This document shows, one piece after another, positions 8,405 to 33,678 of a DNA stretch of 64,000 bases (positions within the stretch are counted from its first letter, which is position 1; each line of letters starts with the position of its first letter). This DNA is from Clostridium sp. DSM 17811 (GTDB lineage: Bacteria; Bacillota; Clostridia; Clostridiales; Clostridiaceae). Under the pieces are notes generated by a model. The model did no database searches and was not told where the DNA came from. It saw nothing but the letters and a program-made list of their open reading frames with translations. Location of the stretch: contig NZ_JAHLDU010000001.1 in assembly GCF_018861905.1 (NCBI RefSeq), positions 248,001-312,000 on the forward strand, given 5' to 3'. The position numbers and the translations under genes were made by a program.

Positions 8405-8615
8405 TATTATCTTCTTTTGCGAATGTAGAATTCTCGTGAGCCTGACAGGACACATAACAATTAATAATTGTTATGTCCCCCAGAGAACTGCCCAGAGGTT
8501 CAGGCTAGCGAACCCACAGGACAACCAGGGTGAGCGGTAGAGAATTCTACATAAGCAAAAGATTAGAGTTTCTTAATGAAATTTCACGTTTCGAGCTCGT
8601 ATTGCAATGCATGCT
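8405..8615. repeat. Interspersed inverted repeat, family A, copy 1 (left arm shortened)
   Basis: Long imperfect inverted repeat with arms meeting at GTAGAATTCTC (about 8425) and GAGAATTCTAC (about 8540). The right arm runs on to about 8615; the left arm is cut short at the neighbouring terminator. The core holds GCCTGA (8440-8445) paired with TCAGGC (8500-8505), followed by TAGCGAACC, as in the other two copies. Between the two halves of this stem sits the 49-nt submodule at 8452-8500. No open reading frame is present. It lies between convergent genes (small membrane protein and lysA). Confidence 0.8.
8452..8500 (+). repeat. 49-nt submodule nested in repeat A1
   Basis: Contains the palindrome CATAACAATT-A-ATAATTGTTATG, then two spaced CCCAGAG units. 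A near-identical 49-nt block occurs at 28758-28806 inside repeat A2, but at a different place in the element, and it is absent from A3. Confidence 0.75.
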
Positions 8616-8639
8616 GGAGAATTTAGATACTTTTGTTAT

Positions 8640-9938
8640 CTATAAACATACTTCGTTACTAATCATTTCTTTGTATGTTTGTCTTTTGCATATTATTTTG
8701 TGATTACCTTCATTAACTAAAACTACTGGAGCCTTAGGTATTTTATTGTAATTACTACTCATTGAATAGCCATAAGCACCAGTTGATAATAAAGCCATAA
8801 GATCTCCACTATCCACCTTTGGTAGATTAACACCCTCAAGGAGTATATCCCCACTTTCGCAGCACTTACCTGCAATTGTAACTACCTCCATACATGGTCC
8901 ACTTATTTTATTTGCAAGCACACATTGATATTGTGCATTATACAAAGCTGGTCTTATATTATCAGTCATTCCACCATCTACTGCCACATACTTTCTAACG
9001 TCTGGAATATCCTTTATAGCACCTACAGTATATAGTGTTATCCCTGCATTAGCTACAATTGATCTACCAGGTTCTATAACAAGAATGGGCTGTTTTATTC
9101 CATATTCTTTGCAACAAACTTTAGTCTCCTCAAGTATAACTGAGCAAAATTCTTCTATTTCCTTAGGCTCATCACCCTCATCATAATAAACGCCAAATCC
9201 TCCACCTAAATCTAATTCTTCTATATCATAATTAAACTTATCTTTTATATGTTTAATTACAGTTGTCATTATATTTACTGCTTCTCTATAAGGTTCTACT
9301 TCGAAAATTTGAGACCCTATATGACAATGAAGTCCTGCTAGTTTTATACTAGGTAAACTTAAAGCAATCCTTATAACTTCTTCAAGCTCATTTTTTAATA
9401 TAGTAAATCCAAACTTTGAGTCAATCTGTCCAGTTTTTATGTAATCATGAGTATGGGCTTCTATACCAGGAGTTACTCTAAGAATAACCCGTTGAATAAT
9501 ACCTTTTTCCTTTGCATTTTCATTGATAATTTCCATTTCATGAAGATTATCTACCACAAAGGTTCCAACTCCAAGTTCTATTGCCATTTTAATTTCATCA
9601 ATTGTTTTATTATTACCATGAAAATATATGTTTTCTAGTGGAAATTTAGCCTTATAAGCAGTATATAATTCTCCTCCAGAAACTACATCTAAATATAAAC
9701 CTTCACCTTTTATAATTTCACACATTGCAATAGTTAAAAATGCTTTCCCTGCATAAGCTACCTTATTATGTTCGCTCTTAGCTTTAAAAGATTTATAGAA
9801 TCTTCTACAATTATCTCGTATAAGCTGTTCATCCATTATGTAAAGTGGAGTACCATACTCCTTTGCTAGTACCTGTGCACTTACACCTGCAATACTTAAC
9901 GTATTATTCTCATTTTTTACGTTGCCGAAAAATCTCAC
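8640..9938 (-). CDS. lysA: Diaminopimelate decarboxylase
   Basis: Catalyses the last step of lysine synthesis, meso-diaminopimelate to L-lysine, using pyridoxal phosphate. The protein has 432 residues, the usual length. Visible motifs: VAYAGKAF with the cofactor lysine near residue 65, HCHIGSQI, LGGGFGVYY, EPGRSIVANAG and the substrate-site CCESGD that completes the dimer active site. The start is GTG at 9938 behind GGAGGG; the nearby ATG runs straight into TGA, so GTG decides the frame. It lies 29 nt after lysC and shares its riboswitch-controlled transcript. Repeat A1 lies just past the stop. Confidence 0.96.
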   Translation of the reverse strand: MRFFGNVKNENNTLSIAGVSAQVLAKEYGTPLYIMDEQLIRDNCRRFYKSFKAKSEHNKVAYAGKAFLTIAMCEIIKGEGLYLDVVSGGELYTAYKAKFPLENIYFHGNNKTIDEIKMAIELGVGTFVVDNLHEMEIINENAKEKGIIQRVILRVTPGIEAHTHDYIKTGQIDSKFGFTILKNELEEVIRIALSLPSIKLAGLHCHIGSQIFEVEPYREAVNIMTTVIKHIKDKFNYDIEELDLGGGFGVYYDEGDEPKEIEEFCSVILEETKVCCKEYGIKQPILVIEPGRSIVANAGITLYTVGAIKDIPDVRKYVAVDGGMTDNIRPALYNAQYQCVLANKISGPCMEVVTIAGKCCESGDILLEGVNLPKVDSGDLMALLSTGAYGYSMSSNYNKIPKAPVVLVNEGNHKIICKRQTYKEMISNEVCL

Positions 9939-11304: not shown

Positions 11305-11334
11305 AAAATTTATATTTTTACACAAACTTCGTGT

Positions 11335-11504
11335 ACCTTGTAGCTCTCCACTAATAAATTAGTGACAACCCTACACATATTATGTGTAAAACCAGAAAAT
11401 AATTTTACCAAATATATTTTCTTCGGCCATAACTCCTTTTCTTATTCATCCTCGCTTGCATGCTCCAAATAAGTACTAATAGACACAGCACCTCTACCCT
11501 AGGT
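11335..11504 (-). promoter_or_regulatory. Lysine riboswitch (L box) upstream of lysC-lysA
   Basis: On the minus strand this leader carries the conserved lysine-aptamer blocks in order: GTAGAGGTGC, TTAGTACTTA, the GAGGATGAATAAGAAAAGG segment, ATGGCCGAAG, GGTTGTCACTAA and AGTGGAGAGCTAC. Its ends can pair (ACCTAGGGTAG with CTACAAGGT) as helix P1. A small TACAC/GTGTA hairpin and then a terminator follow before lysC. Lysine binding should favour termination of the lysC-lysA transcript. Confidence 0.95.
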
Positions 11505-28569: not shown

Positions 28570-28626
28570 ACTTATAGTTATATCAGTGTAACACTCATAT
28601 CTTAATAAGCATAGTAATCCCACCGG

Positions 28627-28881
28627 AGTGACTTGCAATAAGAAACGACAAAACTATTAAATTTCATTTAGAAATTCTTCTTTTGAGAATATAAAATTCT
28701 CGTAAGCCTGACAGGAAGTCAGGCTAGCGAACCTGAGCCAGGAGGTTGAATGTGAGTACATAACAATTGATAATTGTTATGCGCCCCAGAGAACTACCCA
28801 GAGGTTGAGAATTTTATATAATCAAAAGATTAGAATTTGTTAATTGAATTTCTAGTTTTTAGTTCTTATGCAATTCACACA
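28627..28881. repeat. Interspersed inverted repeat, family A, copy 2
   Basis: About 255 nt. The left arm begins GTGACTTGCAATA and the right arm ends TGCAATTCAC; the arms meet at AAAATTCTC (about 28693) and GAGAATTTT (about 28807). The core hairpin is GCCTGAC-AGGAA-GTCAGGC (28706-28724), then TAGCGAACCTGA. The 49-nt submodule occupies 28758-28806, after the core hairpin rather than inside it. It lies immediately past the truA stop. Confidence 0.85.
28758..28806 (+). repeat. 49-nt submodule nested in repeat A2
   Basis: Same length and order as the block at 8452-8500: palindrome CATAACAATT-G-ATAATTGTTATG, then two CCCAGAG units and GGTT. It takes the place of a short GATA stretch present in copy A3. 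Confidence 0.75.
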
Positions 28882-28903
28882 GGTGATTTCTTGCTTTGTT
28901 ATC

Positions 28904-29644
28904 TTAGTATTCAACGCCTCTTAAAGCTAATCCTTTAGATTTAGCCATTGGTATATATGCCGATGCTTCTGTATCAATTAATAAATTTTCAATATCAATT
29001 GGTTTTATATTCCCTTTACCTACTTCTAGAAGACTACCCACAATAATTCTTACCATATTCCAGAGGAATTCATCAGCATTAATTTCTATCTCAATAATAC
29101 CTTCTTCTAATTCTATTATATTAATATAATTAATAGTTCTTATAGTAGACTTAATATTTATAGGTACTGTGGCTAAATACTGAAAGTCATGAGTACCAAC
29201 TAAATATTCTGCTGTATTTTTCATTTCTTCTAAATTAAGTAGCATCTCGGAGTTATAAACATATTTTCTATTAAACACGTTTCTTAATTCACTATTACTT
29301 ATTTTATACACATAAGTAATTGATTTTATATTATATCCTGAATTAAATTTTTCACTTGCACACTCCATAGACTTCACTGCTATATCATCTGGTAAATCTC
29401 CATTAAGATAATCCATAATAGCTTCTATACTTAAATCACAGTCGGTATGAAAATTTGCCACATAGTTCTCGGCATGCACACCTATATCTGTTCTTTCGCA
29501 ACCTGTAACTTCTATAGGTTCCCCTACCATTTTAGATAAAGCACTTTCAATTTTACCTTCAACCGTTAAATCATTATCTGGTTGTTTCTGCCATCCCTTA
29601 TATCTACTTCCATCAAATTCTAATATCATTTTTAAATTTCTCAT
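28904..29644 (-). CDS. truA: tRNA pseudouridine synthase A
   Basis: Converts uridines 38-40 of the tRNA anticodon stem-loop to pseudouridine. About 246 residues. Family signatures: LEFDGSRYKGWQKQP near the N-terminus, the catalytic Asp in GCERTDIGVHA near residue 50, and the ITYVYKI and FLWNMVRIIVG segments. Start: ATG 29644 follows AAAGGTGG; an in-frame GTG at 29656 is inside that ribosome site. The gene stands alone, with family A repeats on both sides. Confidence 0.94.
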   Translation of the reverse strand: MRNLKMILEFDGSRYKGWQKQPDNDLTVEGKIESALSKMVGEPIEVTGCERTDIGVHAENYVANFHTDCDLSIEAIMDYLNGDLPDDIAVKSMECASEKFNSGYNIKSITYVYKISNSELRNVFNRKYVYNSEMLLNLEEMKNTAEYLVGTHDFQYLATVPINIKSTIRTINYINIIELEEGIIEIEINADEFLWNMVRIIVGSLLEVGKGNIKPIDIENLLIDTEASAYIPMAKSKGLALRGVEY

Positions 29645-29768
29645 ATATATATCCACCTTTACCTTATTTCTTAACCAACTCTCCTATTTTAAGTTGTTTT
29701 ACTTTTCCTCTGCACGTTCAAGTATAAATTACTTTCTTTATGAACATATTAAGCGCAAATTTCTACGA

Positions 29769-29976
29769 AGTGACTTGCAATACGAAACAACGAAACTATT
29801 GAAATTCGACTTAGACATTCTTGATTTATAAATGTAAAATTCTCGTAAGCCTGCCAGGAAGGCAGGCTAGCGAACCTGAGGCAGGACGCCGAATGTGAGT
29901 GATAGAGAATTTTCCATGAGTAAATCATTAGAATTTCTTAGTCAAATTTCCAGTTTAAAGTTCGTTTGCAAGTCAC
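29769..29976. repeat. Interspersed inverted repeat, family A, copy 3 (simplest form)
   Basis: About 208 nt with full arms: GTGACTTGCAATACGAA at the left and TTCGTTTGCAAGTCAC at the right end. Core hairpin GCCTGCC-AGGAA-GGCAGGC (29849-29867), then TAGCGAACCTGAGGCAGG. Compared with copy 2, one stem pair has changed from A-T to C-G on both sides. No 49-nt submodule is present. It lies upstream of truA and past the end of the VWA gene. Confidence 0.85.
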
Positions 29977-30002
29977 ATAGAAAAAATTCAGGGTTTATCA
30001 TG

Positions 30003-31367
30003 CTAATGTATTGGCTCTTGACTTTGCATAGAAAACCCATCAACCATTATATCTAATCTTTCCTGCATATCCTCTATTATCTCTACAGGCTTTAGTTTTT
30101 TTATTATTCCAAAAGGTTCCTTTAATGATAGTTTATCACCACGTCCCGATATAACCCACAATGTTTTGTAACCCTTTGGTAATACATCCAGTTTTTCTTC
30201 ACCTTTTCCATCTGTAAAATATATTAGTATATTAGTATCTGTACCATTTACATATTTAAACACAGGTGTAAATTTCGTACCACCACGACTAGTACATCGC
30301 TCTCTTATGCTATTAATAGATTTAACCTTATATACCTGCCTTATTTGCGTATCACATTCAATCAGAGTTATTTCATGTTTATAAGTTTTCACTATATTAA
30401 ACACTTCCTTTATTGCTCCCTTAAACTCCTCATCGCTTATACTACCGCTTACATCTATAGCCAAGGTAATTCTAGCAGTATGCCCCCTAAGTTCTCCTCT
30501 TAGATCCAATCTATTAGGTTGACGCCTACTTCTTCTTGCAACAGTCTTTTTTTTATCACTTTCCAATGTCCCCATAATCTTTTTCAAATACAAATTCCAA
30601 GGAATTTCACCTTTTTCGTTTTTTAGCCCCTTCAAAATACCCTCTAAATAAAGAGGTACTTTGCCTTTTTCTGAAAGCATGGCATATTTCTGCGTAAAAT
30701 TTTCAAGAGTTTCCTCGTCTACTTCTATAGATTCTTCCCATAAATCATGAGTTTTTCTAGCATCATATTCTTTTTCTATATGCTTATCCTTAGAGTCATC
30801 CACTTGACTTTCATCATCTTCCTCTAAAAGATCCAAAGCTTTCTGAATCTCCTTTGCATAATATTCCATACCCATATATTGTTGAAGATTTAATCTATAT
30901 TTTGAATTTATACTGTCTATCGTTATAGAAAATGGTGGAAGATAGTTTAAATATTGATTAACTACTATATCCATTGCCATATTAATAGCCAAGGTGCTGT
31001 ATTTTGTTTTAAGGCCTCTTGCACGTTTTAAATGAAATGATAATATGTGATAAATCTCATGTTTTATAGCGCTCTTCATCTGCTCTGCTGTGAGGTTTAA
31101 GAAAATATATGGATTAAAGTAAATAACATACCTAGATAATTTAAAATTCACAGCTGTTGGAGAACTTATATCATATTTTATCTCTCTAGACATTTGAAGC
31201 AAAAAATAGCCATAAAAATTGTCCTTATCCTCTATTAACATAAAATTAACCATTGTAACGAGTTTCAAGAAGTCATTTGTAAAATTGCTTGGCATATCCC
31301 TTATGCTTTTCACATTAGAAATTTCATCATAAAGCTCACTTTTAAGGATTTCAAATTTTTTTCCCAT
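30003..31367 (-). CDS. VWA-like protein with HExxH metallopeptidase motif (DUF2201 type)
   Basis: A 454-residue protein, no signal peptide. The N-terminal half has AIKHEIYHILSFHL (HExxH zinc motif near residue 100), as in the putative metallopeptidase part of DUF2201 proteins. An acidic linker (about 190-235) follows. The C-terminal half is a VWA-like fold with the metal-site start LAIDVSGSIS (near 300), TRGGTKF-type Thr region (SRGGTKFTPVF) and YFTDGKGE. Ribosome site AGGTGA. The gene lies 8 nt after the MoxR-type ATPase, the usual AAA plus VWA pairing. Peptidase activity is not established for this family. Confidence 0.85.
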   Translation of the reverse strand: MGKKFEILKSELYDEISNVKSIRDMPSNFTNDFLKLVTMVNFMLIEDKDNFYGYFLLQMSREIKYDISSPTAVNFKLSRYVIYFNPYIFLNLTAEQMKSAIKHEIYHILSFHLKRARGLKTKYSTLAINMAMDIVVNQYLNYLPPFSITIDSINSKYRLNLQQYMGMEYYAKEIQKALDLLEEDDESQVDDSKDKHIEKEYDARKTHDLWEESIEVDEETLENFTQKYAMLSEKGKVPLYLEGILKGLKNEKGEIPWNLYLKKIMGTLESDKKKTVARRSRRQPNRLDLRGELRGHTARITLAIDVSGSISDEEFKGAIKEVFNIVKTYKHEITLIECDTQIRQVYKVKSINSIRERCTSRGGTKFTPVFKYVNGTDTNILIYFTDGKGEEKLDVLPKGYKTLWVISGRGDKLSLKEPFGIIKKLKPVEIIEDMQERLDIMVDGFSMQSQEPIH

Positions 31368-33458: not shown

Positions 33459-33678
33459 CAAAATTTTAAAATCATTAATCCAAAATACCGTTGCCCCAAT
33501 TTTTACACCTATCTTTATGATAGGTGGGTGTCCTCAGAGATGTATAACAGTCCTTGCCAATTAAAAATTGGTCTTATAAGCCAAATGCACATCTAGATCT
33601 CGAACTCCCGTATAAATATTGTAGGTTGAAAATAAGAGCTTGACGAATACCCCAGAAATCTAATTTTTAAAATATTTG
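33459..33678 (-). ncRNA. ssrS: 6S RNA
   Basis: About 220 nt on the minus strand with no reading frame. The ends pair (CAAATATTTTAAAA at 33665-33678 with TTTTAAAATTTTG at 33459-33471). The 5' part reads ATTTCTGGGGTATTCGTCAA, like the start of 6S RNAs. The 3' part reads GAGGACACCCACCT followed by a small hairpin CACCTATC/GATAGGTG (33506-33526), placed as in known 6S RNAs. The middle forms a long rod capped by CCAATT/AATTGG. 6S RNA mimics an open promoter and binds sigma-A RNA polymerase. It has its own promoter and terminator. Call made by eye, not by a covariance model. Confidence 0.82.

What the first reader, a model, noticed from the sequence alone, without database searches (positions are those of the whole stretch)
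28627..29976. Family A: interspersed inverted repeats with a covarying core hairpin, flanking truA
Two copies (28627-28881, 29769-29976) and a third at 8405-8615 share long imperfect inverted arms and a core GTAAGCCTG...TAGCGAACCTGA. The core stem is GCCTGAC/GTCAGGC in copy 2 and GCCTGCC/GGCAGGC in copy 3: a paired change that keeps the helix. That suggests selection for RNA or single-strand structure, not just shared descent. No transposase or reading frame lies inside, so it looks like a non-autonomous mobile repeat or a structured RNA family that I cannot name.
Basis: seen in the sequence. Interest (0 to 1): 0.7.

Follow-up and report, generated by a model that had tools for sequence, protein, structure and literature searches.

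The report
Palindromic RNA repeats at gene ends
A cold-loving Clostridium carries some thirty copies of a DNA palindrome, each with a small folded RNA-like core, sitting almost always just after a gene's stop codon on the opposite strand; it belongs to an RNA family already catalogued but of unproven function.

Summary
The three window copies are real, and the model scores 31 distinct places in the host genome. Matches occur in all 17 genomes of the host's genus searched, and RF01731 in 35 of 391 Clostridia sampled. Covariation is strong: 26 of 42 pairs change on both sides, against at most 8 when partners are slid.

New here. (1) The core favours one strand: 41 G-U against 3 A-C mismatches in the two GGA-loop hairpins, but 31 against 33 in the long arms. 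So the core behaves like an RNA of the plus strand, the arms like DNA. (2) The element's 3' end faces the stop codon of an opposite-strand gene in 66 of 71 gene families, at a nearly fixed distance. (3) Copies are old and inherited in place (lysA: element or relic in 13 of 13 genomes).

CsrA binding, proposed in print, fits the loops. Host co-occurrence with CsrA (30 of 35 against 95 of 356) disappears once flagellar genes are controlled for. No target duplication was found; no transposase was sought. Expression and function remain untested.

The parts
28607..28896 (+). Copy 1 of the element; right end about 7 nt from the truA stop codon (28904-28906, minus strand); carries a nested module
28705..28725 (+). 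Copy 1, hairpin 1 (stem AGCCTGAC/GTCAGGCT, loop AGGAA)
28727..28757 (+). Copy 1, hairpin 2 with tandem G.A steps and AGGA loop
   Evidence: comparison
28759..28804 (+). Nested palindromic module (CATAAC...AGAGG) after hairpin 2
29751..29996 (+). Copy 2 of the element, complete, without nested module; right end about 6 nt from the stop codon of the DUF2201 (VWA-like) gene (30003-30005, minus strand)
   Evidence: (RF01731, 51.1 bits at 29799-29952)
29848..29868 (+). Copy 2, hairpin 1 (AGCCTGCC/GGCAGGCT, loop AGGAA)
29870..29900 (+). Copy 2, hairpin 2 (loop AGGAC) with two tandem G.A steps
8412..8632 (+). Copy 3 of the element; outer left arm missing; right end about 7 nt from the lysA stop codon (8640-8642, minus strand)
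8451..8498 (+). Nested palindromic module inside the loop of hairpin 1 of copy 3
28904..29656 (-). truA-like gene (PseudoU_synth_1) whose stop faces copy 1
30003..31367 (-). DUF2201 VWA-like gene whose stop faces copy 2
8640..9938 (-). lysA-like decarboxylase gene whose stop faces copy 3

Best explanation
This is the cold-adapted Clostridium branch of the RF01731 (TwoAYGGAY) family: a dispersed palindrome of about 250 nt with matching ends. SHOWN: long inverted arms enclose a core of two hairpins with GGA loops; the core is constrained on one strand (+) and the arms on neither; the + strand runs toward the stop codon of a convergent gene and its palindrome usually ends within a few to about 15 nt of it; copies are inherited in place across the genus. 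INFERRED: the palindrome originally spread as a non-autonomous DNA element (MITE-like), its arms kept matched by DNA processes or selection; the core is transcribed from the + strand and its two GGA-loop hairpins bind a dimeric GGA-binding protein of the CsrA type, so that each copy is a small decoy or regulatory RNA lying convergent to its neighbour gene. Approximate odds: family identity 0.95; core is a + strand RNA 0.75; MITE-like origin 0.65; CsrA binding 0.4.
For: RF01731 match above cut-off. Covariation on 48 copies from other genomes. Strand test: core G-U 41, A-C 3; arms 31 and 33 (104 cores). Invariant unpaired features on the + strand: the first tandem G.A step in 102-103 of 104 cores. 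GGA loops and the second G.A step are kept or lost together: both loops GGA in 86 of the 89 cores with the step, loop 2 GGA in none of the 15 without it. In distant Clostridia GGA loops stand on wholly different stems. Matching ends and dispersal beside 71 gene families. Position: 131 of 141 copies and 66 of 71 gene families face an opposite-strand stop codon, core-to-stop quartiles 55, 61 and 65 nt, versus 163, 304 and 491 nt on the other side. lysA: element or relic in 13 of 13 genomes. Own genome encodes CsrA. A CsrA role for the family is proposed in PMC4333381 (passages seen).
Against: The CsrA co-occurrence (30 of 35 against 95 of 356) vanishes among flagellated genomes (29 of 34 against 94 of 113, p = 0.50). 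Five element-bearing genomes have no CsrA match above the cut-off; a permissive search gave only weak partial matches (best E 0.037) in 4 and nothing in 1; two of the five are at least 95% complete. A subfamily, 15 of 104 cores, has lost GGA in loop 2 and 7 of these also in loop 1, yet persists. No conserved promoter: left and right arms vary alike (54 and 61 one-sided changes) and 33 of 104 copies carry G in the -10-like box. No target-site duplication. 25 of the 41 core G-U cells lie in one column; without it the ratio is 16 to 3. Copies are related by descent, so cells are not independent. G.T wobble can also be tolerated in single-stranded DNA.
Confidence: 0.5

Rival explanations
1. It is purely a DNA element (MITE-like or hairpin-targeted), and the core hairpins are the single-stranded DNA structure recognised by its mobilising enzyme; there is no RNA function.
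For: Inverted ends, no ORF, dispersal; arms strand-symmetric; a nested module sits only at two hinge positions in the 29 distinct cases that the script matched, as if hairpin tips were insertion targets; a family member in another family of the order (L121) is flanked by two exact 30-nt copies of a terminator-like hairpin.
Against: The core has GGA loops, tandem G.A steps and a G-U bias on one strand only, and GGA loops occur on unrelated stems across families. By my reasoning from gene orientation, untested, the + strand is not the one exposed on the lagging-strand template. No target duplication in the genus; no transposase identified, none searched for.
Confidence: 0.25
2. It works in the transcript of the adjacent gene: a 3' UTR hairpin (the reverse complement) that ends or stabilises the mRNA, which would explain the stop-codon anchoring.
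For: A gene's stop faces the element's right end, mostly within a few nt, in 66 of 71 gene families; the reverse strand folds as well (z -10.5); relics keep the gene-proximal end at lysA, truA and the DUF2201 gene; bcr repeats in Bacillus cereus are often in UTRs (PMC3446304, passages seen).
Against: Wobble and unpaired conservation point to the other strand. At truA an ordinary terminator lies beyond the element in copy 1, and elements are missing or decayed at orthologous genes, so they are dispensable there.
Confidence: 0.2
3. The arms' paired changes are a mutational by-product (quasi-palindrome template switching or gene conversion between copies), not selection.
For: In the flanks printed, ends keep complementarity in a locus-specific way (by eye), and mismatches are strand-neutral, 31 G-U and 33 A-C.
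Against: Does not explain the strand-biased core, the invariant G.A steps or the loop conservation.
Confidence: 0.4

Closest known systems
TwoAYGGAY RNA motif, Rfam RF01731
   Same: Passes the covariance model in 6 of 20 copies tested; two GGA-loop hairpins, tandem G.A stem, outer stem
   Different: In this genus loops are AGGAN pentaloops rather than AYGGAY hexaloops; full palindromic arms with matching ends; 9-40 model matches per genome, re-hits included; stop-codon anchoring; nested modules and tandem left halves
CsrB/RsmY-type CsrA-sequestering RNAs
   Same: Paired hairpins with GGA in the loop; proposed for this family in PMC4333381
   Different: Many dispersed palindromic copies, no promoter found, binding untested, co-occurrence not specific once motility is controlled
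bcr1-type MITE-like repeats of Bacillus cereus (PMC3446304, passages seen)
   Same: Interspersed intergenic repeats, some with conserved RNA structure, some transcribed within UTRs
   Different: No sequence relation tested here; whether bcr repeats keep a fixed orientation and distance to stop codons was not examined
QMITE1/QMITE2 MITEs of Coxiella burnetii (PMC5896051, passages seen)
   Same: About 50 copies, conserved between strains, some at gene 3' ends, three small RNAs derive from them
   Different: Sequence relation not tested; CsrA does not occur in that text

Membership tests
RF01731 TwoAYGGAY | Covariance-model score at or above the curated cut-off of 43 bits | tested here: met
   Copy 2 51.1 bits; 70.2 and 68.1 bits for two own-genome copies; 6 of 20 full-length copies pass; the other 14 did not appear at E up to 0.1
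RF01731 TwoAYGGAY | Two terminal loops AYGGAY | tested here: inconclusive
   Both loops hold GGA in 86 of 104 cores but as AGGAN pentaloops; hexaloops occur in other Clostridia
RF01731 TwoAYGGAY | Tandem G.A pairs in one stem (stated in PMC4333381) | tested here: met
   103 and 102 of 104 for the first step; 87 and 89 of the 89 copies that keep the second; 15 lack the second
CsrA-sequestering RNA | GGA in paired hairpin loops | tested here: met
   86 of 104 cores in both loops;
CsrA-sequestering RNA | Host encodes CsrA | tested here: met
   Own genome yes; 30 of 35 element-bearing Clostridia; no match above cut-off in the other 5
CsrA-sequestering RNA | Distribution tied to CsrA itself, not to motility | tested here: not met
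   Among FlhA-bearing genomes 29 of 34 against 94 of 113, p = 0.50
CsrA-sequestering RNA | Transcribed and bound by CsrA | not testable with these tools
   No RNA or binding data here
MITE | Terminal inverted repeats, no ORF | tested here: met
   (window copies)
MITE | Target-site duplication | tested here: not met
   81 copies: direct flank matches no longer than in shuffled pairs; one 30-nt repeat in a single copy, L019
MITE | Autonomous element with the same ends | not tested
   No dedicated search was made
MITE | Occupied and empty sites in relatives | tested here: inconclusive
   truA: no element visible in 3 of 12 genomes, relics in 3, flanks too diverged for exact junctions; no clean empty site where both flanks matched in close species
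REP/BIME | 20-40 bp palindromes (size as given in the abstract start of PMC3733652 in a search listing) | tested here: not met
   The unit is about 250 nt

The most novel reading that the evidence does not exclude
A transposon-like palindrome has turned a regulatory RNA into its cargo: dozens of copies, each parked antisense at the end of a gene, broadcast pairs of CsrA-type binding hairpins, so that the flagellar and metabolic regulator of these Clostridia is buffered by a genome-wide, mobile-element-borne sponge whose output is coupled to convergent transcription of the anchored genes.
Probability: 0.15. Interest if true: 0.85.

Novelty: new variant of a known kind. Interest (0 to 1): 0.58.

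Why it matters
An orphan Rfam family turns out, in one genus, to be a high-copy palindromic repeat with an almost fixed orientation and distance to stop codons, and with strand-specific constraint in its core only. That makes the old CsrA suggestion directly testable, gives a strand to look for in RNA-seq, and offers a case where DNA-level and RNA-level palindrome evolution can be separated within one element. The control for motility also warns that simple co-occurrence with CsrA is not evidence.

Tried and rejected
Promoter in the left arm (TTTAGA-N17-TATAAA): rejected, because the -10-like A is G in 33 of 104 copies and the two arms vary alike. Target-site duplication in the genus: none beyond control in 81 copies. 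Recent movement: none seen among G000, G001 and G004 where both flanks could be matched; several comparisons failed for want of a flank. CsrA link by co-occurrence: strong at first, not separable from flagella. Integron-like attC site: considered because each copy follows a stop codon; set aside because lysA keeps its copy in 13 of 13 genomes; no integrase search was made. Whole-window Rfam scan at gathering threshold missed the family; the permissive scan found it. Paper searches for the repeat in C. estertheticum, MITE plus CsrA (its one paper, Rfam 12.0, does not link the two in the passages seen) and CsrA plus repeat elements gave no prior description in what I saw. A stem-loop survey (PMC2267715, passages) lists other Clostridium families, not compared by sequence. 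The hairpin picker is crude: 40 of 69 picked hairpins hold GGA, and many of the rest are arm pieces.

Rows dropped: A4 used 48 of the 69 matches (left out: 12 with inserts, 1 cut off, 1 reverse re-hit, 4 low-scoring or diverged, 3 from other genera); orthologous copies remain, so its rows are not independent. One search kept 106 of 143 distinct cores by length and a core motif, then 104 after leaving out two from other genera. One search used 64 of 69 and 77 of 89 matches (duplicates and re-hits left out; the second copy in L010 and the copy in L137 left out by oversight); at least 5 of its 141 copies are the same copy seen in two collections, so the gene-family counts are the safer ones. The CsrA and RF01731 lists and the FlhA list were copied by hand (one FlhA hit below the cut-off left out). 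In one search at most 7 candidates per genome were scored, so its copy numbers are lower bounds; the own genome scored 0 there although one search finds 2.

Full report
What is there. The three copies are real. Each is an imperfect palindrome. From complete copies the ends read about AAGTATGAAATTTCTCC...GGAGAAATTTCATACTT, with much variation, so the window copies span about 28607-28896, 29751-29996 and 8412-8632 (left arm mostly lost). Fold energies are 7-9 standard deviations below shuffles, as any palindrome would give. Copy 1 carries an extra 46-nt module after hairpin 2, and copy 3 a 48-nt one in the loop of hairpin 1. No ORF of 60 aa or more lies inside.

What it is called. The default Rfam scan of the window missed it. 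The permissive scan finds RF01731, TwoAYGGAY, at 29799-29952, 51.1 bits against a cut-off of 43. Two own-genome copies score 70.2 and 68.1, and 6 of 20 full-length copies given to Rfam pass. The motif came from a 2010 screen, whose table lists it as probably RNA and not cis-regulatory (PMC2864571, passages seen); Rfam now types it Cis-reg. A 2014 paper proposed from motif matches that it is a CsrA-binding small RNA of Clostridia (PMC4333381, passages seen). I found no paper describing it as a repeat (searches; listings, and passages).

Where it occurs. The own genome has 45 BLAST matches, fragments and re-hits included, and 31 distinct places scored by the model (my count). A covariance model built from 20 own copies finds it in 23 of 60 genomes, the host included: all 17 of the host's genus, with 9-40 matches each (re-hits of the palindrome included), and 6 others, of which one (G020) has 21 matches. 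A pattern scan of named genomes found 58 stretches: 42 in C. frigoris, bowmanii, lacusfryxellense, tagluense, algoriphilum and strains CF012 and CS001, 15 in MAGs, 1 in C. sp. KNHs214. In a class-wide draw RF01731 is in 35 of 391 genomes and 23 of 223 genera, with copy numbers capped at 7 by the search.

Is the structure selected? On 48 copies from other genomes, 97.4% of cells form a pair, 26 of 42 pairs change on both sides (151 cells), and the covariation score is 0.255. Sliding the partners by 1-3 columns gives 4-8 such pairs, 9-19 cells and scores of 0.025-0.050. At one orthologous place, behind lysA, the stem reads GCCTGAC, GCTTGCC, GCCTGCC and ATGCCGCC in different species, each with its matching partner. 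In 104 distinct cores the two core hairpins show 41 G-U but 3 A-C mismatches, while the arms show 31 and 33. G-U on the plus strand would read as A-C on the other, so the core is constrained on the plus strand and the arms on neither. One column supplies 25 of the 41; without it the ratio is 16 to 3. The invariant tandem G.A steps and the pair that is T-A in 49 and C-G in 40 cores tell the same story. The second G.A step and the GGA loops go together: of 89 cores with the step 86 have GGA in both loops; of 15 without it none has GGA in loop 2, and 7 lack it in loop 1 too. In more distant Clostridia GGA loops stand on unrelated stems, with exceptions (ACGAT loops in 4 picked hairpins).

Where it sits. 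In 131 of 141 copies, and in 66 of 71 gene families, the neighbour on the right is on the minus strand, so its stop codon faces the element's right end. The core-to-stop distance has quartiles of 55, 61 and 65 nt, which leaves from almost nothing to about 15 nt between palindrome and stop (6-7 nt in the window copies). On the other side, distances to a facing stop have quartiles of 163, 304 and 491 nt. Between co-directional genes the element is antisense 57 times and sense 6 times (31 against 4 gene families). A separate count of right ends gave 121 of 137 with a facing stop nearby. In the window, copies 1, 2 and 3 face truA, a DUF2201 gene and lysA (Pfam hits). Outside the genus the rule is looser: a minus-strand right neighbour in 23 of 35 loci, at wider distances.

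How old. Behind lysA 9 of 13 genus genomes keep a core (one cut by a contig end) and 4 keep only arms or relics. Behind truA, of 12 genomes 5 have a good copy, 1 a decayed one, 3 relics, and 3 no visible copy, two of these with an ordinary terminator behind the gene (by eye). Among three close species (95-97% identity for TruA and LysA) copies are shared or leave relics wherever both flanks could be matched, and none was cleanly empty. So present copies are inherited in place, and movement is ancient or rare. In near-complete genomes they crowd one zone: 15 of 16 in 3.82-4.45 Mb of G004, 13 of 17 in 4.22-4.95 Mb of G006, 13 of 19 in 4.40-5.11 Mb of G001, but only 5 of 10 in 3.24-3.58 Mb of G015 (hand count, re-hits left out).

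Does it bind CsrA? For: loop form, pairing of sites, the printed proposal, and CsrA in the host. RF01731-bearing genomes have CsrA in 30 of 35 cases against 95 of 356 others (Fisher 7e-12). I then tested flagella as a confounder: FlhA is in 34 of 35 against 113 of 356, and within FlhA-bearing genomes the CsrA difference is 29 of 34 against 94 of 113, p = 0.50. The five CsrA-negative genomes gave nothing above cut-off on a permissive search, only weak partial matches (best E 0.037) in four; three are 80-88% complete, two are 95 and 98%. So co-occurrence neither proves nor excludes CsrA. The remark that the loops match the published CsrA binding consensus is from memory.

Mechanism I commit to. 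A formerly mobile palindrome whose core is a plus-strand RNA with paired protein-binding hairpins. Shown: structure, strand, place, inheritance. Inferred: mobility by DNA ends, transcription, the protein. Weak points: no duplication, no transposase known (not searched), no conserved promoter, a persisting subfamily without GGA in loop 2, and a placement for which I have no demonstrated cause. Targeting of gene ends, or loss of all other placements, would both give it.

Odd architecture. Several loci carry one to four extra left halves directly upstream of a full copy, each ending in or near the loop of hairpin 1; linkers differ between loci. The nested module sits at one of two hinge positions in all 29 distinct cases that the script matched (three filed there as 'other' follow CAGGA, and one follows GTGTGAACG). 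A family member in another family of the order, L121, lies between two exact 30-nt copies of a terminator-like hairpin.

Noticed in passing
L005 900-1765; L060 653-1197; L077 404-916; L090; L091; L074; L043; L055: Tandem left halves of the element directly upstream of a full copy, each ending at or near the loop of hairpin 1, with linkers that differ between loci. No explanation.
   Followed up: partly
window 8451-8498 and 28759-28804; 29 distinct cases in loci: A second palindromic module, found at only two hinge positions of the element: the loop of hairpin 1, or after hairpin 2.
   Followed up: partly
L121 around 1390 and 1705; L120 likewise but diverged: Element flanked on both sides by the same terminator-like hairpin, an exact 30-nt direct repeat in L121.
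   Followed up: no
L014, L016, L017, L019, L020, L021, L023, L026 (own genome): Subfamily that lacks the second tandem G.A step together with the GGA of loop 2 (15 of 104 cores over all genomes) but still occupies gene ends.
   Followed up: partly
G001, G004, G006 chromosomes: Copies crowd one zone of about 0.7 Mb of the chromosome; cause unknown.
   Followed up: no
391 Clostridia genomes: RF01731 is almost confined to genomes with FlhA: 34 of 35 element-bearing genomes against 113 of 356 others.
   Followed up: partly
window 11333-11504 (-) and 33473-33661 (-): Lysine riboswitch and 6S RNA, both above their Rfam cut-offs.
   Followed up: no
relatives of the host: Three TruA-like matches in 12 of the 13 host-genus genomes searched, the host included; two in the other.
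   Followed up: no
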